64,000 nt of DNA, from assembly GCA_948144175.1 (NCBI GenBank), contig CANXME010000886.1:992001-1056000 (forward strand), read 5' to 3'. Source of the DNA: Closterium sp. NIES-65 (taxonomy: Eukaryota > Streptophyta > Zygnematophyceae > Desmidiales > Closteriaceae). This document shows positions 35,805 to 59,196 of the stretch, piece after piece (positions within the stretch are counted from its first letter, which is position 1; every line of letters starts with the position of its first letter). The notes under the pieces are model-generated. The model saw only the letters and a program-made list of their open reading frames with translations, did not search any database and was not told where the DNA came from. The position numbers were made by a program, and so were the translations under genes.

Positions 35805-38800
35805 TCAAGAAAGGTGGTCAACATCAGGCACGTGCCGGCGAGCAAGATATTGCCCAAGGACCGAGTGCCCCTGTAGTGAGTCAGCCGGGACCCACGTGTC
35901 GTCGTCGGTCGTGCGATCCACCCAGCGCAGAAGAAAATCGACGTGTCGTCCAGCTGGGGTCGCACGAATGCGATGATTCAAGATCTTCCAAGGTTGGAGG
36001 GTGGGGTCTGCCACCGGTCGGACACTTGGCGCCTGGTGGGGTCGAGCGACGTCAGATGACTGGGGTGCCACGTAGTGGCGAAGTAGACTGACGTGGAAAG
36101 CGTCATGAATATGCCAGTCGTCCGGGAGGAGAAGTTTCGCAGTGACCGGTGTCAGCATCCGAATGACGCGGAAAGGCCCCACGTAGCGTGGACGTAGTTT
36201 GGCAGGTTGGGGCAGTTTGAGGTTTTTGGTGTCCAGGAGAACCATCTGCCCCTCGCGAAAAGGTAAATTGCGGCGATGTTGGTCAGCGTAGCGGCTGGCG
36301 TTCGAATTTGCTTTTCGGATAAAGTCCGCTGCTTTGGCGCGCGCTGCCTGGAGCTCCGAAATAAACTGCTGTGACCGGGGGACCGGGTTGTCGGGAGTCG
36401 TTGATAAGGGTACCACCGGGTCTATCCCGTAATTGAGGTAGAAGGGTGACTGCTTGGTCGTCGCAGATGGGGCGTTATTGTACGCAAACTCGAGCATGGG
36501 AAGGGAATCCTCCCACTTGGTGATGTCCGGGCAGTTCGTGCGAATCAGCTGCTCCATCGTTTGGTTTGTCCTCTCTGTCTGTCCGTCGGTTTGCGGGTGG
36601 TAGGACGACGAAAATTGCAGGCGGGTGCCGTACTGTGCCCGTGTCTCCTGCCAAAATTTCGACGTGAATTTCGGATCTCGATCGCTGATGATCGCCGTAG
36701 GTAACCCGTGTAGGCGTACGACGGTCGAGATGAAGAGTCGCGCTGTTTCTTCGGCTGTGATCGTTGTACGGCAGGGCGCGAAATGCACCATTTTCGTTAA
36801 GCGATCAACGACGACGAGCACGGAATCGTTGCCACTTGCGCCAGCTGGAAGGCCCGTGACGAAATCCATAGTCACTTGTTGCCACGGTCGTTCGGGTGGC
36901 TTGAGGGGCTGCAATAATCCAGCTGGGCGTTGTCGTGATGATTTCATTGCCTGGCAGGTCGGGCAGGCGGACACATAGCGCTGCACGTCCGACGCCATGT
37001 CGGGCCAGTAGTAATTCCGTTGTAGCAGCTTCAATGTTTTGTCGACGCCGAAATGCCCGGAGAGGTTGGAGTCGTGTACTTCCTGCGTCAGCAATTCGCG
37101 TAAGGGCCGGTAGGAAGGTACCCAAACTCGGTTAGTACCGACTTTTAGGTAGTAACTTCCATGCGGTGTAGTGACCCCGCGGTGTTGACTGGTCCTGAAA
37201 AACCTGTCGATCCTGTAGCCGTGCTTGAACAATCATGCCAATAAAGGGTTGGAATGGGCGATTAGTACTGCTGCGGTCTGCATGGATGGGCGGGTCAGGG
37301 CGTCGGCGATGTTGTTGGTGCCCTTTTTATATGTGATGGTGTAGCGGAAATTTGATTCGAGGTAGTCGAGCCACCGGATTTGTCGTGGGTTGAGCTGTGG
37401 TTGGCTGCGCATGTACTGTAATGACTTGTGGTCAGTTCGGATTGTGACATCCGCTCCCGTGAGGTAGCATCGCCAGGTACGAAACGCATGCACGATGGCG
37501 AGCATTTCCTTGTCGTGAACCGGGTAGTTGCGCTCGGGCGGCTGCATTTTTCTTGACTCGTACGCGATGTCTTGCAGCCCGTTGCCAAAATCCTGAAATA
37601 GCACATCGCCGACGACGAAATCGCTGGCGTCCGTCACGACTTCGAACGGTCGAGATGGATCTGCCAGCCGAAGCACCGGGGGTGAACTCAAAATTCTCTT
37701 CAGCTCGTTGAAAGCCAGCTGTTCTCTCTCCCCCCAAGAAAACTACACGCCCTTATGCAGCAGATTGGTTAACGGCCTGGTTACCCCCGCCATATTGGGT
37801 ACAAAGCGACGGACGTAGTTAACGAAGCCGAGGAAACTCTGCAATTCGGTGATGTTCGTGGGCGGCTTCCACTCCGAGATCGCTGTTATTTTACGAGGGT
37901 CGATTTTAATGCCGTCCCCTGAGACCATGTGCCCCAGAAACTCCAGCTCCGGCTGTAAGAACTCACACTTAGAGCCCTTCGTAATCAGTCGGTTCTGCTG
38001 CAAGCGTTGGAACACCTCGTCCAAGTCCTGTAAATGTTGCTCCCGTGTCTTGCTATACACCAGGATGTCATCCAGGTAAACAATAACTTTTTTGTCCAAC
38101 ATGTCCCGAAACACCCCATTCATAGTGAGCTGGAAAGTCGATGGTGCGTTCGTCAACCCGAACGGCATCACGGTGTACTCATAACTGCCGTAACGGGTGC
38201 GGAATGCAGTCTTCGGGCAGTCGTCGGCGAACACACGAATCTGGTGGTAGCCACCTCGCAAATCGATCTTCGAGAAGAACCGAGCCCCGCGAAGTTGGTC
38301 TAGCAGGTCGTCGGTTCGTGGGATCGGGTGACGCGACTTGATCGTGACCCGATTCAGCGCTCGGTAGTCGATGCACATGCGCAGGCCTCTGTCCTTCTTC
38401 GGCGTGAATAGTATCGGGGCGGCATACGGTGACGTGCTCGGCCGGATAAAACCCTTGGAAAGCAGATAGTCTAGCTGTCTCTGCAATTCGTCGAGCTCCG
38501 GTTGGTTGAGCCGCCATTGTGACCGGATGGTTGGTTTCGCGCCTGGCTCCAGCTCGATCTTGTGGTCTTCCGGACGCTGAGGTGGCAACCCATCAGGCAG
38601 GTCATCCGCGAAAATTTCGGGATACCTCCGAATTATGGTCGCCACGTCGTCGGGTACAGCAGCGCAGAGCGTGTCGATGTCGGCGATTTTTTCGGAAGCC
38701 ACCACCTCGTACAAATGTACGGCGTAGCCTTGCGCTCCCCGTTTTATCGCCCTTTTCAGCGTTATCGCGTTGACACGTGTTGTCGTCAGCTCCGGCTCCG

Positions 38801-40942: not shown

Positions 40943-41895
40943 TTGTTCGAAATGTGTAACGCTGCATGACAGCTGTGTAACCTAATCGTTCGGTCACGTT
41001 TCGCGCAAGCTACACTGCCTCCGATTTCATGATAAGTCCAGAATCCAGGATGGTGTAAATGGGTTGGAAGGGATTGGCTCTTGTGCGGCAGCGCGTTTTC
41101 AACAGCCTCGGGGACTTACTTGCGGATCACTACCGCGGTGTTGTTCTTTCCGCATGCCTTCCGCCAGCCATCCCCACCCACACAACACAACCCGTTTTTT
41201 TGAAAGCTCAAATCGATGACGAACTAGCCATTCCAGCCAGCACATTCTTGACCAAGCTCCCTCTCACTACCAGCAACTCTAGCGCTCGAATCACGTTATC
41301 GCGTTGGTCGATGTGTTACAGTAGTTTTCTGCCTCGGTCGCATTTCTCCCGACTTGTAGCAGTCCGTGCTACTATCAGCTTCTTCTAACAATCTCTAGCC
41401 TATCGATAAACATTGAATGAAGCAATGGCAGCGATGCAATGCAAGGTGCGAGGCAACAGCCTGACGACCGTCACGTCGTTGAATCCCCGATTGGCTCCGC
41501 CGTGGAAGCCCACGGACGGTCACGATGAAGCGGACTTGCCAGCTCCAATCAAACTCTGCGATGTGACTGTAGCGATCGCAGAGGTTCCGCGCGACGCTCG
41601 TTACATGTGCGACCGTACGGAGGACAGAGTGCGTTCCGATTCTTGATGTTTCCAGCCAATCCGATCCCCTTACATTTTCCGAGTGCGCTCCCATTTGATT
41701 CTCAAACAAGGTTTTTTTACGCTCTCAGCTACGGACCACGCTTCGTGTGATGAGGCGATTTTTGAGTCGACTCAAAAATCGCTCTCAGCCACGGACCACG
41801 CTTCGTTTAAAGAAGGGTTGTTTTTATTCGAAATCTAGGGTTTGAGATGAAGCGTAGAAAAGCTCCATGGTTCCTCCCCGGCGTGGATTTGGCAG
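40943..41895. other. Region upstream of the first recognised POLA2 exon
   Basis: About 950 bp. No exon recognised; frames of about 100 codons occur on both strands with no known motif. The missing N-terminal POLA2 exons could be here or left of gypsy H, in which case H sits in a POLA2 intron. It holds palindrome P1 (41755-41782). Confidence 0.4.
41755..41782. repeat. Palindrome P1
   Basis: A 28-bp perfect palindrome, core TTTTGAGTCGACTCAAAA, outer arms GCGAT/ATCGC. It lies between two 26-bp direct copies starting GCTCTCAGC (41721-41746 and 41781-41806; one mismatch), 8 bp after the end of the first and overlapping the second by 2 bp. Confidence 0.9.
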
Positions 41896-44800
41896 GCCAA
41901 TGAGCTGGAGCGGCGAAATCAACGGTTCATCGCAGCCCTTGCTAGGGCGGATCCGACGTTCGACCCCGCGAAGCAAACCCTGATGGCCTCTCAGGTGAGA
42001 TCAAGATCGTCTCAGGTGAGTCGTCTTAGGTGAGATCGTCTCATGTTTTCCAGATGAGATCGTATTTGATGAGCAGGTAAAATTTCTCCAGGCGAGATCG
42101 TTTCAACGTAACCACCTGCCTCCCCCACATCTCCCCACTCCCCCGCCCCACCTCTTCCCCCCACCTGATTCCCCCACCTCGTCCCCCACCTCTCCCCTCG
42201 CAGACCAGTGTGATGGCGGTGGGTCGTGTCATATGCGATGCAGAGGCAGCAACAGCACGCCTCAACGAGTCTTCAGTGCTTCTGGAAGGATGGTGAGTAG
42301 TGCAGACAAGTGCTTGTAGAGGGGGGAAGCTGTTCTTCTGGAAGGATGGCAGGTGCTTGTAGCGGGGGTGAACTTGTTCTGGTTGAAGGGGTATGTGCAG
42401 AGGCAGCATCGGCACGCCTCAATGAGTCCTCAGTGCTCCTGGAAGGATGGTGAGTGTGCTTGGAAGGAGGAAGGGGGGTGTGCTCGCAAGGGGGTGGAGG
42501 GGAGCTTTGTTTGTTGAAACGCCTATTGCAGAGGCGGCATCGGCGCGCATCAACGAGTCCTCAGTGCTTCTGGAAGGATGGTGAGTGCGGACAAGTGCTT
42601 GTAATGGGGGAAGCTGTGCCCCTGGAAGGATAGTGAGTGTGCTTGTAACGGGTGGAAGTTGTGTTTGTTGAAACGCCTTTTGCAGAGGCTGCATCAGCAC
42701 GCTTCAATGAGTCATCAGTGCTCTTGGAAAGATGACAAGTGCTGCTGACACTACTGTAAGTGCTTGTAGCGAGGGATAAGCTGTGCTCCTGGAAGGATGG
42801 GAATCGCTGACACTTCTGAAAGTGCCCAGGGGAATCTGTGCTGTTGCGTAGCATATTCTGAGATGCAGAGGCAGCATCAGCGCGCCTCATCAAATCAGAT
42901 CCTGGCTGTTGAAGGCAGCAACTCATACACTTCCACTCCCGCTCTCCCAATAATCCACCCTACAGCATCGACCCCTGTCAGGGGCGTTCGGGTTCGGCTG
43001 GACTTGCGTCATCTGCCGTCCTTCTCGCTCTTCCCAGGTCAGATCCTGGCCGTTGAAGGCAGCAATTCACACATTCCCACTCCTGCGCTCCCACCACCCC
43101 ACCCTCACAGCATTGACCCGTGTCAGGGCGTGAGGGTGCGTCTGGACTTGCGCCATCTGCCGTCCTTCTCGCTCTTCCCAGGGCAGATCCTGGCCGTTGA
43201 AGGCAGCAACCCCAGCGGCTATTGCCTCGTTGCTAAGCGGATTGTTGCTGCCCTGCCGTACCAGCCCGTGCCGAGCCTGACAGGCTCGGGAGCGCAGGCT
43301 CGGCGGCGGCCGAAGCGGGCGAAAACGGAAGGGACTGGGGGGAGGAGGAAAGGAGAGAGAGAGGCGGAAAGGAGAGGGGAAGAGAAAGGGAGTGGAGAGA
43401 AGGGAGAGGAGAGAGGGAAGGCAGGGGGGGGAGGTGGGGATGCGACAGGAAAGAAGGAAGAGGAAGGGAAGGTTAAGGAGGAGGGGGGTGGACGGAGAAA
43501 GGTGAATATGCTTCCGTTTGGGCTTGAGGAGGTGATTGCGCTTGATGAGATAGAGGAGATGAGGAAGCACGATGGGGGGGATGAGGGGGAGGCGAGCTGC
43601 GAAGGTGGGGAAGGGAGTAAGGTTGATAGAGAGAATGAGGTGGAAGGGGGGAAGGTGAAAGGCGAGGTGGGGGAGGAGGAGAAGAAGGAGGTTAAGTTTG
43701 AGGGTGATGCTGATAAGAATACTGCTGATGCTGAGGCTGGTTCTGGCGGTGATGCTGGTGCTATTGCTGGTGACGGTGGTGATAAGGATGGGGAGGGTGG
43801 AGTGGAGAAGGGGACAGAGGAGAAGGTGGGTGGTGATGCTGCTGGTGGTGGTAACGTGGCTTCTGGCAGTGATGCTGCTGAGGTGCAAGAGAGGGTGGAG
43901 GCTGGGACTGAGGGGATGGATACAGAAGGAGTCAGGGCGGTGGAGAGCGGTGCTGCTGGTGTAAAGGCCGAGGGTAATGAGGAAGAGGAAGAGGACGATG
44001 ATGAGATGAGGATTGTGAGTTCTCTGGCCCTGCTCCCTCATGTGACTTGTGCTCTTGACAAAGTGACTATTGAGTCGACTCAAAAGCCACCTCGTTTTCC
44101 TTGAGTCGACCAGTCAGACGATGACGAGATCAAGATTGTGAGTTCTCTGGCCCTGCTCCCTCATGTGTCCTATGCTCCTCACCAAATTCACTACTTCCGC
44201 CTTTTTTGTCTTGCTCTTCCTCCTGTTGCCATTGCTTCCCGAAAGGGAATATTGAGCAATCAAGGACTCCTTCGACCCCCCTCTGGCGCAGCAGCCGCAT
44301 CGCGTAGAACCATGTTTTTATGGTGTAGAAAACCTTTCACTTGGTTTTCCATGGTTTTCGCCTTTCCATGGTTTTCGCCATTCACCACATTCTACGTGTT
44401 TTGATATCATGTTTCCTGGTCCGTAGCCCGCCATAATTTCTTTCTCCCTGTTTTTTTTTTTTCTTTTCGTTTCTTCCTTTTTGCTTTTGTTTTTTCTTCT
44501 TCTTGTGTGATCAGATCGCGGCAGCAGGTCCCTTCACCACGATTGACTCGTGGTCATTTGAGCCGCTAAAGGACCTGATCAAATTCGCACTGCAGCGACC
44601 ACCGGATGTGCTGCTGCTGGTATGTTAACCTGCCGTTGCCTGCTGTTACCTTGCTACTGGCATGCTGGCATGCTGGCATGTTGACTCGTGGTCATTCAAG
44701 CCGCTCGAAGGTCGTATCAGATTCGCACTGCAACAACCGCCTGACGTGCTCCTGCTGGTATGTGTATGCCTCACTGTACCCGCTGGTTTATTGCTGCTGT

Positions 44801-47800
44801 TATGCCGCTGCAGCTGGCAAGTCAACGCCTCTCTTCACCTGCTGCTGTGTTGCTGTTAGTGTGCTGTGCTATGCCGTGCGGACTTCCTGGCATGCTGGAC
44901 CATGAGTATCCATGCCAGCAAGTACTAGACTCATGCTGTACTAGTCATGGTACTCGACTCATGGTCATTCCAACTGCTAAGGGCCGTCATGAGATTCGCA
45001 TTGCAGCAACCACCGAAACGTGCTGCTGCCGGTACGTGTATGCCTGCCTCACTTCACCTGCTGCTGCCGGTACGTGTATGCCTGCCTCACTTCACCTGCT
45101 GCTGCCTTGTTACTGACATGCTGACTCATGGTCATCTGATGCTCGGAAAGACGTGATCAGATTCGCACTGCAGCCTCCACTGGACGTGCTGCTGCTGGTA
45201 GGTATGTTCACTCAACCCCCCATGACAATGTGCCATTGCTAGCTAGTAGCTCATATGCGCATATGAGCTGCTCTGCATTTGTGTGCATTTCTTCGTATGC
45301 ATGTATGCACATGTGTGGGACGGTTGTGTGTGTGGACGTACTTGGTGAGGCGCCCACTGCCACCCACCCCCTCCTCCAGTTCCCTTTCCCTCTCTGGTGT
45401 ACGCATGTGAGTAGCTCATCTGCATTTGTGTACGCATGTATGCACACATACATGCGTACATGCTCATTTGTATGGGACGGTTGTGTGTGTGGACGTACTT
45501 GGTGAGGCGCCCACTGCCACCTACCCCCTCCCTCCCCGGCCTTTCTATGTTTTCCCCTTTTTATACCACATGAGTCCTTTATCGATCGCGAGCATCCTGA
45601 TGTTGCTTTGGATGGGGCTGTTTTTGTATGAAGGGATGGCCGCTTTGACCAGACCCACGACGAGACGAGGCACTCCTCTCCTCTCCACAGTCCACCTGCC
45701 AATATGACTTTTGAGTCGACTCAAAAGTCAACCAGACCCACGACGAGGCACTCCTCTCCTCTCCACAGTCCACCTGCCAATTTACATATGCTGCCAATTC
45801 CCTTTAGGCTGAATCTGGTTTTTTTTAGAATTCTCAAAAAATTGACCAGACCTACGACGAGGCACTCCTCTCCACGGTCCACCTGCCAATTTACATATGC
45901 TGCCAATTCCCTTGGTTCAATATACCCCACTGGCACTCCACCCCTCCACCTACCTTCACACCAGATCGGCGCCTTTATCGATCGAGAGCATCCTGATGCG
46001 CGGGACAGCTGTGTTGACCAGACCTATGAGGCACCCACCTCCATCCCCCCCCTCCCCCTCCCTCTCCTCCTTGCTCCCCTCCCCCACCCTTCTATGTTTC
46101 CCCTCTTGATCAGATTGGCCCCTTTATTGACAGAGAGCATCCTGATGCGCGGGACGGCTGTGTGTGTGGACCAGACCTATGAGGCGCCCCCATTCCCCCC
46201 TTCCTCTTCTCCCCCCCTCCCCGCTCCCCACCATTCTGTGTTCCCCCCACTTGACCAGATTGGCCCCTTTATTGACAGAGAGCATCCTGATGCGCGGGAC
46301 GGCTGTGTGTGTGGACCAGACTTATGAGGCGCCCCCATTTAAACCTTCTCTTTTCAAAACTGCTGCTCGCTGGAATGTCTAACAACCCACCACCCTACCT
46401 TTTGTATGTTTCCCCTTTTACCCTTTTATCAGGTCGGCCCTTTCATTGACCGAGAGCACCCTGATGCACGGGACGGTTGTGTGGAGCACACCTACGAGGC
46501 GCTCTTTCAGCAGCACATCCGCGCACAGGTGAAGAAGGGGGATGGGCAGGTAGGGGGACAAAGGGGGAAAGCTAGGAGGACGAGAAAGCTGTGTCGACCA
46601 CACCTACGAGGCGCTCTTTCAGCAGCACATCCGCGCACAGGTGAAGATGGAGAGGGAAGGGCAGGAGGAGCAGGAAGGAGACCGTGGGGACCCACGGGAA
46701 AAGCAGCGCAAGTGTGGACCAGAGTAACCAGACGTATGTGGCACATATACGCATCCTTCAGCAGCACATCTGCGCACAAATGATTGGGTGGGGAAGACTT
46801 TTGAGGCGCCTCAAAAGTCCTTCAGCAGCACATCTGCGCACAAATGATTGGGTGGGGAAGGCGGGCTGGCTGCGGAAGGTGGGGAAGACTTTTGAGAGCG
46901 GGCAGGAGGCACCTGCATAGTGGCCCTCCTCTCTCAGGTGGAGGAGTATTGTGAACGGCAGGAGGCACCTGCAAGGTGCCGCTGCTCCCGTCACCGCTTC
47001 TGCTGCTGCTGCCATCCTGACTAATCTTTTCTTTCCTCTCCCCACTCCCTCTGCTCCCATCGCTTTCTATTCCCTGCTCTCTGCCTGCGTTCTCTGGTGG
47101 AGGAGCATTGTGAGCGGGCAGGAGGCACCTGCAAGGTCTGCTGCCACCGCCACTGCTGCTGCTGCTGTTGCCCTGTATGAGATATCCTTTTCTCTCCCCC
47201 CCTCTCAGGTGGAGGACTATTGTGAGCAGGCAGGGGGCACGTGCAAGGTGCTGCTGCTGCCATCATTGAGAGACGCCCACCGCGCCATCTCAAGACACTC
47301 TTTTCCTCCTCTGCTCCTCCTTGTTTCTCTTTCCCCCCTGTATCCCCTGCTCCTGCCCCACCCCTTAGGTGGAAGAGTTTTGTGAGAGGGCAGGAGGCAC
47401 CTGCAAGGTGCTCCTGCTGCCGTCACTCAGAGACGCACACCACACCATGATCTTTCCTCAGGTGAATCCTCAGGTGGCCGTGCTTTCAGGGGGGGGTTCT
47501 CACTCACTCTGAGACGCCCACCATGCCAGGGGGTCTGGCAAGTTCAGACACCGTTCAGCCTGTCTAACACACAGGTATGAAGTATCGAGGTGACTTTTGA
47601 GTCGACTCAAAAGTCACTTCAGACACCGTTCAGCCTGTCTAACACACAGGTATGAAGTATCTCTGTGTGTTACCATCCCTTGGCAGCCTCTGTTTGACCC
47701 ATCTCATTCTGAACAACTGTAAAAGCCCATTGTGACCCTTGAGAAGTCCTCTGAATCCCTCGAATGGTCCTTGCATTAATCAGGGGGGGTGTTACAAGGG

Positions 47801-50730
47801 AGATGCAAACACAAGCAAGACAAACAGCCAGACCTCAATTCTACCTATCACACCTACTCCTTCCCTCTCCCGGCCCCCTCTGTCCGACCCTACTGGCCGA
47901 ACGGGGGCTCAATCAGCTGGTGCAGCTGTCCCTCGCTAAGAGGGACGATGGGGCCCTGCATGCCGAGCTCATCCGCTGCCAAGGCCTCGTTGGTCTTGGA
48001 GCGGAGGGCATTGGCCTGCGCTCTCTGGAGGCAGACACTCCAGCGCTGGCGGTACTCCGTCAGCAGCTTGGCTGCCTCGTATGAGGTAGGAGCTGCGTTG
48101 TATCGCAGCTTGGTCGCTAGCTCCGCGCACTGCCGCAGGTAAGCCAGCACCCCCGGGTAAGCCAGCACCCCCGGGTAAGCCAGCACCTCCGGGTAAGCCA
48201 GCACCCCCGGGGAAGGACAGCCGTAAGTCTCGACTGCGAGGGCGTGTAAGCCCACCCACGCGTTCCTTCGCGCGTATTTCTCCTCCTTCCTAGCTGCTGC
48301 CGCCCTTGCCGCCCACCCTGGAGCCCGACTGCATTCTTCATCCTGGTAGGACACGGAATCCCTCTGTATCCCTCCTTGTGGATCTTCCTCTCTCCCCCTC
48401 TCTGCATGTGAGTAGCCTCCCTTTGGCTCGTCTGACTTTGAAGACCCCCGCAAGCACGTTGCGACTCTTGGATATTCCTCTCAATCCCCCTGAATCCCCC
48501 TGGATCCCCCTGAACTGAATCCCCCTGAATCCCCCTGAATCCCCCTGAATCTCCCTGAATCTCCCTGAATCCCCCTGAATCCCCCTGAATCCCCCTGAAT
48601 CCCCCTGGGTCCCCTGGAATCCCTCTGCATCCGTCCGTGTGGAACACCTCTTCCTCTTTCCCCGTCTCTGCATGTGAGCAGCCCCCCTTTGACTTGTCTA
48701 GCAAGTCCTCACACTAGGCAACCCTCTAAATCCCTTTACATCTCTTTTTTTGGTCCCTTCCTCTCTACCCCTCTCTGCACGTGAGCAGCCTCCCTTTGAA
48801 TCGTCTGACTTTGAAGACCCGCAAAAGCAAGTCTTGATGCTTGGAAACCCCTCTCAACCCCTTAAAATCTCTCCCTAAACGCCCCTTCCTCTCTCTCTCC
48901 CCCTCCCTGCATGTGAGCAGCCCCCCTTTGACTCATCTGACTTTGAAGACCCGCGCAAGCAAGTTCTCATGCTTGGGAACCCCTCTGAACTCCTTTACAT
49001 CTCTCTGTTTGGAACCCTCTTTCATCTTTCCCCCTCTCTGCATGTGAGCAGCCTCCCTTTGACTCATCTGACTTTGAAGACCCACGTAAGCAAGTCCTCA
49101 CACTAGGCAACCCCTCCGCCTTTATGCTCGATAACCAGGTCAGCGTTGCTGTGTTGTGATTTGTTTTTTAGAATTGTAAATTTGACTTTGAATCTGAAGA
49201 CCCACGAGAGCAAGTCCTCACACTTGGCAACCCCTCCGCCTTTACACTGCTATGTTGCACATCCCTCGAATCCATCCACACGATTTTCGTTGATGTGGGC
49301 AAACCAGCGTTGTAGCAACAGGGTTCATCTCGTCGTCTCGTCTCATTGTCACTTTGCGGATGTATCTATGCACAACAAATACCGTATTGTGACCCAAAAC
49401 TCAATTTCCATCAAGACAATTTATTGGAGTTATGAGGCGCCTCAAAAGTAAAATATATGGAGTTTCCACTTGAATTTGTTGATTCGCCTATCTTTGTCCA
49501 CTTCGCCTGCTTCTGGCCGAAGGATCAAACTCCTGAAAATCCTAAAAAGTATCTCTCTTTTGCACTTGCCAGGTTGGCATCGCCTGCTCGTCCACCGACA
49601 TCCTCCGCCACCTCAGCAAGGAGGAGATCGCCCGCGTGGCGCCAGGAGACAGCGCCACGTCAGACCGCATGTCCAGGCTGGCGGCGCACGTGATTGGCCA
49701 GAGGAGCTTCTACCCGCTCTTCCCTCCCCCGCCCGCCACCTGTCTCGACCTCTCCTGCTGCCCCCAAGCCCTGGATCTCCCATTTGCTCCTCACCTCCTC
49801 TTCCTCCCATCAGACCTTGTCCCTTTCGTGAAGGTAAGCCTTCCTTTGCCCTCACCCTCCTTCTCCACTTCTCTTCACTTCCTGTCTCTTGCTCTTCCCT
49901 CCCCCGCCCGCCACCTATCTCGACCTCTCCTGCTTCCCCCAAGCCTTGGACCTCCCCTTTGCTCCTCACCTCCACTTCCTCCCATCCGACCTCGTGCCCT
50001 TTGTCAAGGTGAGCCGTCTTCCTTCCTCAACAACTTCCCCTTTCACGCCACCTGTCTTGACCTCTCCTGCTGCCCCCTTGTATCTTCCTTTCTCTCCTCA
50101 CCTCCTCTTCCTCCCATCCGACCTCGTCCCCTTTGTCAAGGTGAGCCCTCGTCCCTCCTCTTCTCTTCTCCCCCCTTTTCTCCCCTGCCACCTGTGTCGA
50201 CCTCTCCTGCTGCCCCCAAGCCTTGGTCCTTCCGTTTGCACCTCACCTCCTCTTCCTTCCATCTGACCTCGTCCCCTTTGTCAAGGTTAGCTCTCCTCCT
50301 TCGCTCCTCACCCCCTCTCCTTCACCACTTTCAGTCGGCGAGTCACATCTTCTCTTCTCCGTACACTACCACACTCCCTCTCTCCCCTCTCCCACACCTG
50401 CCACCTGCCTCGATCTATCCTGATGTTCCAAAGCCTTGGATCTCCCGTTTGCTCCTCACCTCCTCTTCCTCCCATCTGACCTCGTCCCTTCTGTCAACAC
50501 TTCTCTTCTCTTCTTCACACTCTCTTCCTCTCCCTTCCCACCTCCCCCCCAGTGACACCTGCCTCGATCTCTCTTGCCGCCCCCGAGTCCTCGAGCCTCC
50601 CTTTATCCCTCACTTCCCCTTCGCCCCCCGCCTCCCTTTCGACCTGCACCTTCTGTTACTTCCATCCAACCTCTCCCCTTCCGTGCCATTGTTTCTTTTG
50701 TCTGCAGGTTTTGCCCATGCAACAACCACC

Positions 50731-53230: not shown

Positions 53231-56200
53231 TCAAGAGGAGAGCAAGTGAGGCAAAACAGGTACAAGACCCAGCTGGGTGCAGAAGCGCTGATGGTCACAA
53301 GGCGCGAGTGCCTCGGTGAACACATCAGCAGTGTTGGCCTCAAAGGCCACGTACGCAAGCCGCAACTGTCCACGCTGCTGTAGCTCACGAGCAAGGAAGT
53401 AGCGAAGAGCAATGTGCTTCGTTCTGTGCTCCAGACGGTGCTCTCGACACAAGGCCAGCATGGCCTTGTTGTCTACGTACAGCACTGGAGGAGAACGAGG
53501 CGGCTCTCCAAGGTCAGTCAGCAGGTAGGTGAGCCAGCGAAGCTCCTGTGCAGCCATGGCCCCTGCGTAGATCTCAGCCTCACAACTGGAGCTGAGAACC
53601 GAAGACGAGCGAGTAGCCCGCCACGAGACAGAGCCGGAACCAAGGCTGAAGGTGTAACCCTGTGACGACCGCTGCGTAGCCTGGTCGTCAGCCCAAGAAG
53701 CGTCCGCGTGACCTGTAAGGACCACTGGACTCCGCCCTCCAAGCACTAGCCCCATGCCCGACGTACTGCACAGGTAGCGCAATACCCTCTTCGCTGCAGC
53801 CATGTGCTCTGGTCGGTGTCTCCCAGGAGCAACATAGCGTGCAAGAATGCTAAGAGGGTATGCAAGGTTTGGTCGTGTGCAGGTCATCAGGTACATGAGG
53901 CAGCCAACAAGCTCTGGGTACGGGCCACTCGACTCTATGGACTCATCCGAAGGCAGAGCTGAGAGCGAGTGACGAGTAGACAGAGGAGTGGCCTGAGGCG
54001 AGGAGTACGTGAAGCGGAAGCGCTGAAGGACCTGCTGCACCATGTGTGATTGAGTCAAGGTAATGGTGCGGCGTGCTCTGTCCCGATTGATCTGCAAGCC
54101 AAGGTAGCTGCGCAGTTCACCCAGGTCTGTGCACGTGTGTCTCTTCAGCAGCTCGGACTTCACGTAGGCGAGTCCAGCAGTGTCCGCTGTGGCAAAGACC
54201 AAGTCGTCGACGTACACGAGGATGTAGAACGGCGGCAGAGAAGTGTCGGTGCGCAGAAACAGCGACGGGTCAGCAGTAGAAGGAGCAAATCCAAGAGCCG
54301 CAAGCGTAGTCCTCAGTGTGTCGTGCCACTCACGCGGTGCCTGGCGGAGACCGTAGACTGGCCGTCGGATGCTCCACTGGGTGCCAGGAGGGAAAGTCCC
54401 AGTGAAGCCAGGTGGACGGCGCAACCAGATCTCCTCGTGCGGGCTACCCTGCAAGAACGCAGTGCTGAAGTCGAGAGAGTGAAGCTCGTAGTCGCGCTGC
54501 GCGGCTATGTGCAGCAGCACCCGAAGAGTGGTCATCTTCGGGGTGGGAGAGAAGGTCTGAAAGTAGTCAACTCCCTGCCGCTGACTGAAGCCACGAGCGA
54601 CGTACCGCGCCTTGAAGACAGGTGGAGAGCCCGGCGGCCGCTTCACCCTGAAGATCCACATGCCACTGACGATGTTCGCCCCAGGAGGGGGAACCGCGTC
54701 AACGTAGGTGCCTGTGGACTTCCACGAAGCCATCTCTGCATCCATAGCTGCCTGCCACTGAGAGGAGTAGGGACCCTCTACGGCCTCCGCGTAAGAGTGC
54801 GGAGTCGGGATGTCTAGTGCATCCGGGTCTCCCTCAGGAGCAAGCAGTACAGACGCGAGATGAGGTGAAGCAGCAGCCAGACACTGGAACTCCTCCTGCC
54901 TGTCCTCTAGGACGTCCGTGCCAAGAGCACACTCACCCCCAACGGACGGAGGACAGACAGACGCAGACTCAACAACAAGACTAGCAGCGTAGTCTAGACG
55001 ACAGCGAGCAGCAAAGTCGACGAGCTCAGCGACAAGAGGAGACGCATCAGCGGACTCAAAAGAGGGGTCAGTGACGACAGTAGCAAGCAGACGCGTGACA
55101 GTAGGACTGGCAGCACGAAGGGAGTCCGACTCTGGGTCGGTAAGCACAGGAAGGGAGGACTCAGGAGGAGAAGGCAAAGGGGCATGCAGAGGAGCAGTGG
55201 ACGGACGCAGAGACATCCGGTGCGTGCCAGGGACAGGAGGAGGACGCTGACGCGAACCACGACCACTAGCGCGAGCAGCACGAACAGGCAACGCGGGACG
55301 AGACGCAGGCTCACGACGCTCAGCAAGACCTCCAGTAGGACCAGTGTAAGGAGAGGGAGCAGGCAGTGGGGAGGTGGGCTCCAACAGTGACTGCGACTGG
55401 ACAGGCTGTGGACACTCTACCGGAGGAGAAAGACCAAGAACCTGCTGCAGGAGCGGAACGAAGTACGGCCGAGGCCGCGCGGCAGCTCCAGACTCAGCAG
55501 GGACAGCACCAGCACCCTCAGCGGCAGCACCAGCGCCACCAACACCTCCAGCGGCAGGACCTCCAGCAGCACCAGCAGCAGAACCACCGCCAGGACAAAC
55601 AGCAGTAGTCTCAGCACCAACACCCTCAGCAGCTCCAGCTCCAGTAGGACCCGCAGGCCCAGCAGCTCCGGGACCGGCGGCACCAGCACCCTCGACGGTC
55701 GAAGAAGCTCCAGCTCCAGCAGTACGCCTCCAGCGGCGAGCAAACCACTCGCGCAGCTCCTGTGGAGAGAGGGGCTCCCGCCGAGACGCAGCACCAGGAG
55801 AAACCCCAGGCTCAGCAGCACCAGACGCAGCACCCCCAGGCTCAGCAGCTCCAGACCCAGCACCCCCAGGCTCAGCAGCTCCAGACTCAGCACCCCCAGG
55901 CTCAGCAGCTCTAGACTCAGCACCCCCAGGCTCAGCAGCTCCAAACTCGGTACCCCCAGACTCAGCACCCCCTAGCTCAGCAGCTCTAGGCACAGCACCC
56001 CCCGGCTCAGCACCCCCAGGCTCAGCACCCTCAGCAGTGGCACCCCCAAGCTCAGCACCCCTAGTAGCAACACCTCCAGGCTCGACACCCCCGCGGACAG
56101 CACCCCCAGAGTCAGCACCCCCAGGCTCAGCACCCGCAGCAGCACCAGAGTCACCAGTAACCTCGACCGGGTCAACTGCGTCTACCTGGGACACACCTGA

Positions 56201-59196
56201 GGGGGCAGGAATCTGAGGGGGGAAGGGGTCTACCGGGGGGGGAACCGGCACAAGGAAGTCCGGCGGCGGGGGGAGGGAAGGAGTGCGGTAGGGGAAGAGG
56301 CGGTAGAAGGGGACTGACTCGTCGAACGTGACGTCCTGGGAGGACAGAACACGACGAGAGGAGGGGTGGTAGAACTGCCACCCTGGAGCGTTAGGGGGGA
56401 AGCCAAGGAAGACACAGGGAGCAGCACGAGGGGACAGCTTGTCCGCAGACAAGTCGCGGACAAACGCCCTAGATCCCGCAGACGCATCGCTGACCTTCCC
56501 CGTCCACAGCAAGACTGGGGACATCGCGGGCCGAGAGACCCTGGGGTGAAGGTTGAGCTGATGCGCCGCGTACCGCACCGCAAACGGCCACAGAAAATGG
56601 GGGGCAGCCGCATGCATCATGGACGTACGAGCGACATCCATGACCATGCCAATGCGGCGCTCAGCAACCCCATTTTGCTGTGGAGAGTCCGGAAGCATGA
56701 AGGTTTGGCGGATCCCCCGTGCACGACAGTAGTCTCGCAGAAGGCGAGAGGAGAACTCTCCGCCTCGGTCAGAGTGCAAAGCAGAACAGGAAAGTCCGAG
56801 CCGAAGCTCCTCCTGAGCTGGAGACGAGCCTCGCGGATCCAGTCGATCAGCACCTCAGTGACAGCACCCTTACTGCGCAAGGGGAAGACTGTGGTGTAAC
56901 GAGAGTAGTCGTCAACCACCAACAGGAAGTAGCGCTCGTGACCCTGCCCACGGACGGGGGCTGGGCCCCACACGTCCATGTGAAGTGTCTGCAGAGGAGC
57001 CTCCGTCGGGAGAAACTGGGAGGAGTGAGGAGCAGCCCGGAGGCGCCCCTCGACACAGGGGACACAGGAAGGTCCTGGTCCCGAAGGAAGGGGAGGGAGA
57101 GACTGGGGAAGACCAGAGACAAGGACACGGGAAGCCATGCCCCGAAGACAAGGCAAGGAGGGGTGGCCAAGACGGTGGTGCCACAGAAGGGTCTCGTGAG
57201 ACAGGAGGCGACACGAACAGGGGGCAGACTCAGGGCCAGACCGGGACGCAGCAGCAAACACCTGACCTGACGCAGCTACCTGACCGGACGCAGGGACAGG
57301 AGGAGACGCTGTGGTCAGGGTGTAGAGGCTCGACCCCGGCCGACGCGAGAACGTGGCCAGGTGCCGGCCGGTGCGTGCGTCCGTGCAGTGGGTCACCCGC
57401 TGACTCGCAGGAGTGAACTGGTGAACCCCCGCATCCTGTAGGTCCGCACCACTCACCAAGTTCGTGGAGAACGAGGGAAGGTACAGACCAGACAGGGTGC
57501 CCGAGGGGGCAGCCGGACACGGGAGGACAGTGGAAAAGTGAGAGAGGACAGGACCCCCAGAGGGGTCAGCCAGGGAGACCGCAACCGGCCGGCCAAGCGG
57601 CGTGAGGGTGGTGCGGTCTCGAAAGAAGGAGCGAGAAGCCCCGGAGTCAAGTGTGAAAGTGAGGGAGGACGAAGGCGACGCAGTACCTGAGAGCGCAGTC
57701 TCACGAGTACCTGAGAGCACAGACGCACTGGCACCTAGAGCAACAGCCTCACAAGCACCTAGCGCAGCAGTACCAATGCCCGGGTCGGGCGGGAAACACC
57801 GGTAACAGTCACCCTCCTCACTAATAGTCACAGCATACATAGCAGCAAGGATAGCATCAAAGTCAAGATCAAAGATCGCTACACCAGCCCTAAGAAGCTC
57901 ATCCCAGCGGGGAATCTCACTAGCCTCGGGGAACTGCTGACGCCAAGCGTCCGTCAGGCGGCCAAAGCAGCGCTGGGTGGGGTGGGCACCCCCACACTGC
58001 TCACCCGCGCGGTCGCCGGAACGAAGGACGTAGGTACACGGACCAACACCCCCACCCCTCTGACGCCGAGCGTACCACTCACGGAGCTGCTGGGGCGGAG
58101 GGATGTCCCGCGAACGCTGCTGCTGCTGCTGTTGCTGCTGGCGCTGACCACTACCAGCACCGCTCCGCTGCGGGGTACCACCCCGACCAGCTCCACCCCC
58201 TCCGCCACCACCGCCTCCTCCTCTGCCTCCTCCGCCGCCTCCACCTCCACCGCTGCCACCACCACCACCGCTGCCACCACCACCGCCGCCTCCGCCACCG
58301 CTGCCACCACCACCACCACCACCGCCACCACTCCCGCCGCCACCCCCACTCCCTCCGCCGCCTCCACCGCCACCTCCACCGCCCCCTCCAGCTCCACCCG
58401 CGCCCTTGCCCCCCTTGCCCCTGCCAGAGCGGCGTCTCCCACTAGGGGCAGACGCCGCGCCGACCGACTCAAGACCAAGCAGGTCGGCAGCAGCAGCAGA
58501 GGCAACAGAGGGCAGCAGGGGGGAAGGAGAGCACCCCTCAAAGATGGGGGTGCGAGGGTCACCACGAGAAGCTCCTACAGCGACGATGCTCTTCTCCGCC
58601 GCTAGGAGGGCCTTCTCGAGGAGGTCGACAGTGAGGGTGGTGGGACAGACTGAGAGAAAGTGGTCCCTGGCTACGCGAAGAGAGTTAGGGAGGCGTGCCA
58701 CTACGTAGTAGAGAGTAATGTACATGGGGGGGGGGTTCTTGGCGCAGAACTCAGCAGGAAGGGCGGCGCGGTAGCGAGTGTCACTAGTGCGGAGGTGCGT
58801 AATGAGGTCAGCGACAGTGGGAAAGGCAGAGAGGTCAGGGAAGAGGTAGGGAAGCATGAGACGGCTCAATGCAGCAGTGGCAGGGGAAGAGTAGCGCGCA
58901 ACTACAGCGTCGTACAAGGTCTGAGCACTCTTGTACTGACTAAAGTGCGCGCGCTCAGAGGTAGGGAGGTGGCGACGCACAGCAAGACGTGCAGCAGCAT
59001 CGCGGGTGGCCCACTGAGAGCGAACAGTGGGGTCAGCATCAGCAGCAGGGGCAGGAGAGGCGCCAGAAGTGAGGTCAAAGAGAGAAAGGCCGTCTGCTCT
59101 ATCGCACTGTAAGAACAGCTGCAGGTCGTCGACCTAGACCTCAAAGTCAATGGCGCGACCCTCAGCGTCAAAAGCTAGGACACTAGGGGTAGCCAT
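53231..59196 (-). pseudogene. Copia C gag-pol
   Basis: One polyprotein of nearly 2000 codons. Gag from 59196 (MATPSVLAFDAEGRAID), with TAG at 59134-59136 where copia E has a tryptophan codon; gag core to about 58540; glycine-rich linker (58400-58190); Cys/His knuckle (58050-57960); protease LDSGAS near 57635; gag-pre-integrase HRLGHP...CVPC near 57170-57060; integrase from about 56975 with DVWGPAPV; a frameshift near 56775-56785 just before HSDRGGEF; then an intact frame 56779-53231 holding the rest of integrase (QQNGVAERRIG), the pentapeptide-repeat linker (about 56150-55790), RT (about 54800-54080, YVDDL near 54200-54214) and RNase H (CEAEIYAGAMAAQE near 53560). The copia order integrase before RT is clear. 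The enzymes otherwise look intact. Confidence 0.92.

What the first reader, a model, noticed from the sequence alone, without database searches (positions are those of the whole stretch)
41721..49460. A family of perfect palindromes marks tandem-duplication junctions in POLA2
Five sites share one design: direct copy, short perfect palindrome (core TTTTGAGTCGACTCAAAA, TTTTGAGGCGCCTCAAAA, or a decayed form), direct copy. They are P1 41755-41782, P2 44063-44090, P3 45705-45730, P4 46796-46819 and P5 47590-47617. P6 (49433-49444) and P3b (45819-45842) look like decayed members. Copy lengths run from 26 to about 70 bp. I see this palindrome nowhere else in 64 kb. Palindrome integrity tracks copy identity: P4 and P5 are perfect with identical 43- and 44-bp copies; P1 and P3 are perfect with one change; P2 and P3b are imperfect with diverged copies. 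So palindrome and duplication probably arose in one event. Candidates are a tiny palindromic mobile element with very long target duplications, or a staggered break filled in and joined through a fold-back. I know of no described system of this kind.
Basis: partly seen in the sequence, partly recalled or inferred. Interest (0 to 1): 0.93.

Follow-up and report, generated by a model that had tools for sequence, protein, structure and literature searches.

The report
Palindromic patches mark duplicated break sites
A green alga's genome carries thousands of tiny mirror-image DNA inserts, most of those examined sitting between two copies of the stretch they landed in, as if broken chromosome ends had been capped with a short copied tag and glued together head to head.

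Summary
The window lies in an 874-Mb Closterium assembly. Exact cores TTTTGAG-N4-CTCAAAA with N4 = TCGA, GCGC or ACGT occur 13,080, 5,851 and 5,047 times; the reversed pattern occurs 0 times in each search. Of 88 isolated fetched sites, 73 lie between direct copies; flanks paired from different loci gave 0 of 260. Two paralogous empty sites carry one copy of the target and no palindrome, so palindrome and duplication arose together. The centre is fixed and the edges are ragged, the opposite of a TIR transposon. Tail starts share more bases with the target end than chance (1.26 against 0.34). Some inserts hold up to seven or ten direct units before a head-to-head centre. I favour two templated tails, each ending in a self-complementary 4-mer, added to the 3' ends of a staggered break, paired head to head and filled in, which duplicates the overhang. 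Enzyme and template are unidentified, and chained inserts are not predicted by the simplest form. I found no description in print.

The parts
41720..41806 (.). P1: direct copy 41720-41746, insert with TCGA-class core 41760-41777, direct copy 41780-41806
   Evidence: core exact, copies 26/27; palindrome extends 41755-41782
43994..44191 (.). P2: direct copy 43994-44067, core with one change 44068-44085, direct copy 44117-44191
   Evidence: copies 64/75; the same changed core is in the paralogue L105:3439, so it probably predates the gene duplication
45648..45781 (.). P3: direct copy 45648/45664-45703, TCGA core 45709-45726, direct copy 45731/45742-45781
   Evidence: 40/40, or 51/56 when extended
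45731..45913 (.). P3b: direct copy 45731-45804, AATT-class core with one change 45822-45839, direct copy 45845-45913; its left copy overlaps P3's right copy
   Evidence: copies 67/74
46754..46860 (.). P4: direct copy 46754-46796, GCGC-class core 46799-46816, direct copy 46818-46860
   Evidence: copies 43/43
47543..47661 (.). P5: direct copy 47543-47586, TCGA core 47595-47612 in a 28-bp palindrome 47590-47617, direct copy 47618-47661
   Evidence: copies 44/44
49430..49447 (.). P6: GCGC-class core with one change; flanking copy not convincing
   Evidence: 10/12, score 5.8

Best explanation
Each palindrome is a repair patch made in one event at a staggered double-strand break. SHOWN: in two cases a single target stretch S of an empty paralogue corresponds to S-palindrome-S; the insert is TTTTGAG-N4-CTCAAAA plus ragged arms; N4 is nearly always self-complementary; the same N4 recurs at the outer end of arms in the ACGT class and between the units of multi-unit TCGA and GCGC inserts; units can be reiterated head-to-tail before a head-to-head centre. 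INFERRED: two nicks tens of bp apart leave S as a 3' single strand on both ends. Each 3' end is placed by a few bases on a short template, most simply the RNA of a telomerase-like or other template-bound reverse transcriptase, and extended to the template's end, TTTTGAG plus N4; occasionally it realigns on the N4 and is copied again. The two tails anneal through the self-complementary N4 and are filled in, which forces symmetry and duplicates S. Later unequal exchange between copies would make the (S-palindrome)n arrays. Several templates would explain the classes and ACGT sub-types.
For: Counts 13,080 / 5,851 / 5,047 with 0 in each reversed control. Copies at 73 of 88 isolated sites, null 0 of 260. 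Two empty sites. Copy length 13-106 in 49 clean sites, no edge motif seen by eye. Spacing 4 in 162 of 163 cores with spacing 0-10; 156 of the 162 centres are TCGA, ACGT, GCGC or AATT, the other 6 one base away. Microhomology 1.26 against 0.34, 0 of 2000 permutations, 35 junctions, 12 of them with none. Same N4 at 13 nt past CTCAAAA in 16 of 95 ACGT arms, 0.37 expected; some arms are array relatives. Both arms of an insertion agree at 6 of 7 bases or better in 12 ACGT sites (one search lists 50), while long arms of different sites are 41% alike. Direct units: about 10 in L085; 44 exact two-unit TCGA places on 24 contigs; of 20 fetched stretches 18 have a direct copy on both sides and 17 reach an intact head-to-head centre. 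The full-arm outward palindrome has 0 exact copies.
Against: No template gene and no enzyme were found. Direct reiteration is rare (44 exact places against 13,080 TCGA cores) and could be later slippage. In 6 of the 20 stretches (L113, L115, L116, L121, L122, L123; two pairs are paralogues) and in L029, L050, L055, L056 a further half or whole palindrome is chained to the first through a short arm, so back-to-back order does occur; the simple two-tail model needs a repeated event for these, ligation of fragments does not. Microhomology is also expected of end joining. That both arms share a sub-type is not automatic if the tails were made independently; it needs one template used twice. 15 of 88 isolated sites (10 of 36 ACGT) had no copy above threshold; a few of these have a short (L006:3288, 11 bp) or interrupted one (L085). 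Three-prime overhangs are assumed. Loci were chosen by three of the cores and include array members, so the spacing and centre counts are conditioned on the search and not independent. Of 300 random positions in the same loci 24% also had copies, presumably because of arrays and satellites.
Confidence: 0.43

Rival explanations
1. A minimal palindromic DNA transposon (a MITE with almost no interior) is inserted as double-stranded DNA by an unknown transposase that cuts the two target strands tens of bp apart.
For: High copy number, several classes, insertion with target duplication.
Against: Ends are ragged while the centre is fixed; copy length varies from 13 to 106, whereas known transposases give a fixed length (recalled); reiterated direct units.
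Confidence: 0.2
2. Filler DNA: an abundant pre-existing short palindromic or sticky-ended DNA fragment is captured and ligated at staggered breaks by ordinary end joining.
For: Ragged ends, microhomology, staggered-break duplications, head-to-tail units, chained palindromes.
Against: Ligation of full sticky-ended units should give the full-arm outward palindrome as well; its exact count is 0 against 44 full-arm direct joins. No source of such fragments is known.
Confidence: 0.17
3. A short hairpin RNA is retroposed by target-primed reverse transcription of an endogenous retrotransposon, with long variable target duplications.
For: Variable target duplication, one arm truncated in many ACGT sites, microhomology.
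Against: A hairpin RNA does not need a self-complementary loop, yet 156 of 162 centres are one of four such; no 3' tail or endonuclease motif seen by eye.
Confidence: 0.15
4. Assembly or library artefact (adaptor or chimaera).
For: Short shared sequence at joins.
Against: Copies are diverged to different degrees, decayed cores exist, P2 is shared with the paralogue including its changed base, paralogue pairs share multi-unit inserts.
Confidence: 0.01

Closest known systems
Interstitial telomeric sequences inserted at double-strand breaks with telomerase (PMC2246262, passages read)
   Same: Short templated repeat units inserted at breaks; microhomology with the break end in 67-80% of informative loci; target-site duplications in part of the loci.
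   Different: There the unit is the telomere hexamer, deletions are 50-52% and duplications 4.6-16% of loci; here units are longer and of several kinds, the two sides meet head to head at a fixed self-complementary 4-mer, and duplication is found at most fetched sites.
Small tandem duplications by fill-in at breaks with complementary 3' protrusions (CST and DNA polymerase alpha-primase; PMC8355091, abstract read)
   Same: Break with 3' protrusions, fill-in and joining, tandem duplication.
   Different: The abstract names no defined insert between the copies.
MITEs and fold-back DNA transposons (recalled)
   Same: Dispersed inverted repeats with target duplication, high copy number.
   Different: Fixed termini and fixed duplication length there; here ragged termini and 13-106 bp duplications.
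LINE/SINE target-primed insertion and twin priming (recalled)
   Same: Variable duplication length, priming from target ends, possible priming from both ends.
   Different: No poly(A) or similar tail and no nick motif seen; the insert is short and symmetric.

Membership tests
TIR DNA transposon / MITE | Defined terminal ends in all copies | tested here: not met
   Arms end at many places, centre conserved
TIR DNA transposon / MITE | Target duplication of constant length | tested here: not met
   13-106 bp in 49 clean sites
TIR DNA transposon / MITE | Autonomous relative with the same ends and a transposase | not tested
Telomerase-inserted interstitial telomeric repeats | Insert is made of reiterated template-derived units | tested here: inconclusive
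   Reiterated units exist but are rare: L085 about 10 units, 44 two-unit places; that they derive from a template is inferred
Telomerase-inserted interstitial telomeric repeats | Unit equals the organism's telomere repeat | tested here: inconclusive
   No array of the units seen by eye in the first 90 and last 60 bases printed of 19 contig-end stretches; the TTTAGGG search did not complete
Telomerase-inserted interstitial telomeric repeats | Microhomology between break end and template | tested here: met
   1.26 against 0.34 bases, 35 junctions, 23 with at least one base
LINE/SINE retroposon | 3' tail and endonuclease target motif | tested here: not met
   None seen by eye in 49 sites; no formal test
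Break-repair tandem duplication | Empty site has one copy of S, filled site two | tested here: met
   L008:7165 vs L008:6786 and L005:2972 vs L002

The most novel reading that the evidence does not exclude
Closterium has a dedicated or parasitic tail-adding activity, telomerase-like in its logic, with several short templates that each end in a self-complementary 4-mer. It caps both 3' ends of staggered breaks and joins them head to head, so that thousands of micro 'telomere fusions' have become a major source of insertions and tandem duplications.
Probability: 0.33. Interest if true: 0.95.

Novelty: categorically new. Interest (0 to 1): 0.87.

Why it matters
It would be a repair or mobility pathway that leaves a recognisable, dateable scar: the palindrome identifies the event, its arms identify the template, and the flanking copies give the length of the stagger. 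That would make the geometry of natural staggered breaks readable across a whole genome and give a concrete source for at least part of the tandem duplications in these introns. If a reverse transcriptase with short templates is behind it, it would be a telomerase-like enzyme acting inside chromosomes.

Tried and rejected
Considered and rejected. (1) Palindrome first, duplication later: against it stand the two empty sites. (2) Fold-back hairpin of one strand: cannot give symmetry to the centre and would give inverted, not direct, copies of S (reasoning). (3) Any palindrome provokes duplication: in 271,612 bases there were 116 palindromes of arm 7 or more; 72 contain TTTTGAG; of the other 44 tested, a copy scored 12 or more at 10 of 16 truncated TTGAG cores and 1 of 28 unrelated palindromes (split counted by me from its list). 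(4) Free ligation of full sticky-ended units: the full-arm outward form is absent, but chained inserts keep filler capture alive as a rival. (5) P1 and P5 as empty-site tests in the POLA2 paralogue on C985: introns too diverged to align there. (6) The third copy beside P3, and L105:5099 against the window exon, were aligned: the first alignment covers only one side and the second did not open the gap at the insert; neither is counted as an empty site. (7) Outer motif CACGTGGC alone: common elsewhere. (8) Organism: first guessed, then supported by protein hits and assembly size. (9) Palindrome in IMG/VR contigs (18-mer) and in the prokaryote genome collection (24-mer): 0 each. (10) Paper searches; only listings and starts of abstracts were seen, apart from PMC10407611 (passages and section 7), PMC2246262 (passages) and PMC8355091 (abstract and section list).

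Not done or did not complete: genome-wide counts of the AATT and of all centres, telomere repeat, further paralogues for L008, template gene, transposase or TERT search, random sampling of the genome.

Full report
WHERE IT IS. The window is contig C885:992001-1056000 of an 874,075,685-base assembly in 2,400 contigs. Its POLA2 coding part hits Pfam DPOA2_OB. The three best protein relatives are from Closterium sp. NIES-64 and Yama58-4. PMC10407611 gives 876 Mb for strain NIES-65 (section 7 read); that the window is NIES-65 is an inference from size.

THE OBSERVATION. The five exact cores, P6 and P3b are there. P4 and P5 have identical copies of 43 and 44 bp; P1 26/27, P3 40/40 (51/56 extended), P3b 67/74, P2 64/75. 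P6 has no convincing copy. P3b belongs to a class with centre AATT, whose genome count did not complete.

GENOME SCALE. Exact 18-mers: TCGA centre 13,080, GCGC 5,851, ACGT 5,047; the reversed pattern gives 0 each time. Of the first 50 listed TCGA places, 28 have a neighbour within 130 bases, that is, they lie in (S-palindrome)n arrays. Besides the window I read about 263 kb of this genome, mostly around listed places.

COPIES. Among isolated exact cores (no other core within 130 bases, at least 100 bases of flank; L061 and the two-unit loci L106-L125 left out) 73 of 88 have a direct copy reaching near both edges: 27 of 28 TCGA, 18 of 22 GCGC, 26 of 36 ACGT, 2 of 2 AATT. Left and right flanks from different loci gave 0 of 260, best score 9.2 against a threshold of 12. 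The middle 90% of copies measure 17 to 99 bp and 17 of the 73 are identical; flanks of 130 bases cap the length that could be seen. Random positions in the same loci show copies in 24% of 300, presumably from arrays and satellites, so the flank swap is the better control. Of palindromes unrelated to the core, 1 of 28 has a copy. In the larger loci, isolated exact cores had copies at 23 of 25, one-mismatch cores at 9 of 15, two-mismatch at 3 of 9; reversed and scrambled cores had no isolated hit at 0 or 1 mismatch and one at 2.

ONE EVENT. A paralogous stretch lacking the palindrome carries S once: L008:6786 against the filled L008:7165 (S 16 bp, insert 28 bp), and L002 against L005:2972 (S 20 bp). 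These were the two clean cases among 135 joined queries searched only against fetched sequence; the other hits lay in repeats of L003 and L021. The POLA2 paralogue on C985 shares decayed P2 with the same changed base. Its other three cores (at up to 3 mismatches) are two GCGC and one AATT, with flanks unlike P1, P3, P4, P5 and P6 (by eye), so insertions are of different ages; its introns are too diverged to serve as empty sites for P1 and P5.

ANATOMY OF THE INSERT. The minimal insert is the 18-mer; around it arms are ragged. TCGA class: (CGAGG)TGAC on the left and its complement on the right; ACGT class: about 12 variable bases then CACGTGGC; GCGC class: GTCGTCTC or ATCGTCTGG. Spacing between TTTTGAG and CTCAAAA is 4 in 162 cores and 6 in one, for spacings 0-10; 156 of the 162 centres are TCGA, ACGT, GCGC or AATT and 6 are one base away. 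Loci were chosen by three of these cores and include array members, so the fractions are not unbiased. Both arms of an ACGT insertion agree at 6 of 7 bases or better in 12 sites (one search lists 50 ACGT sites; in many one arm is truncated), while long arms of different sites are 41% alike over 8 bases. Of nine ACGT sites with both arms bounded by S, seven agree and two (L044, L080) do not, with doubtful boundaries. The same N4 recurs 13 bases beyond CTCAAAA in 16 of 95 ACGT arms (0.37 expected); the TCGA peak in the same call comes largely from loci chosen for it. No motif at the edges of S was seen by eye in 49 clean sites, S 13-106 bp.

REITERATION AND CHAINS. L085 holds TTTTGAG followed by about ten direct 19-bp units between copies of a 41-bp S (S read by eye). 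Two direct TCGA units occur at 44 exact places on 24 contigs. I fetched 20 stretches: 18 have a direct copy on both sides and 17 reach an intact head-to-head centre; L106 has seven TTTTGAG units at 17-nt spacing; L119 has two units on one side, one on the other and an identical 52-bp S. Several of the 20 are paralogue pairs, so these are fewer than 20 independent events. In 6 of the 20 (L113, L115, L116, L121, L122, L123) and in L029, L050, L055 and L056 a further half or whole palindrome is chained on through a short arm. The full-arm outward palindrome has 0 exact copies. A two-unit insert could also arise by slippage; the frequency is low.

JUNCTIONS. At 35 usable junctions (arm not diverged from its partner before the junction, template remaining beyond it; the number dropped was not printed) the target end shares 1.26 bases with the template, against 0.34 in permutations, 0 of 2000 reaching it; 12 of 35 share none. 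Without the one array-like outlier the mean is 1.12 (my arithmetic).

MECHANISM. Centre fixed, edges ragged, microhomology at tail starts, recurring N4, occasional direct reiteration and absence of the full-arm outward form are what two templated tails joined through a self-complementary 4-mer would leave. A staggered break with S as 3' overhang on both sides and later fill-in gives S-palindrome-S. Tandem duplication by fill-in at breaks with complementary 3' protrusions is known (PMC8355091, abstract), and telomerase patching of breaks with microhomology and some duplications is known (PMC2246262, passages). That the tails here come from a reverse transcriptase is inference. Chained inserts need repeated events under this model and are easier for filler capture. 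I put the two-tail model at 0.43 against a palindromic transposon, captured filler and a retroposed hairpin RNA.

NOVELTY. No paper in the listings of the searches made appears to describe it; the library holds only open-licence papers, and mostly titles and starts of abstracts were seen.

Noticed in passing
window 45300-46500 and 48380-50300: POLA2 introns hold several decayed copies of exon-like stretches, most of them without any palindrome; they may be older scars or another process.
   Followed up: no
L021:4634, 4690, 4760, 9053 and L016:2128: Long perfect palindromes built on GAACATGTTC, arms up to 23, not flanked by direct copies.
   Followed up: no
L029, L050, L055, L056, L113, L116, L121, L122: Inserts with two or three palindromes or halves chained through an arm, as if a new tail had started at the end of an old arm.
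   Followed up: partly
window 36000-37232, 53234-56779: Gypsy-type and Copia-type open frames lie on either side of the gene; no exact NCGN-centred core lies outside 41.7-47.7 kb of the window.
   Followed up: no
L105 (C985:976000-985500): POLA2 paralogue with its own GCGC and AATT members and a tandem array of a 17-bp stretch that is about two copies in the window.
   Followed up: partly
L019:1359 and L028:167: Two cores with the same non-palindromic centre AATC; either the same mutation twice or a rare class.
   Followed up: no
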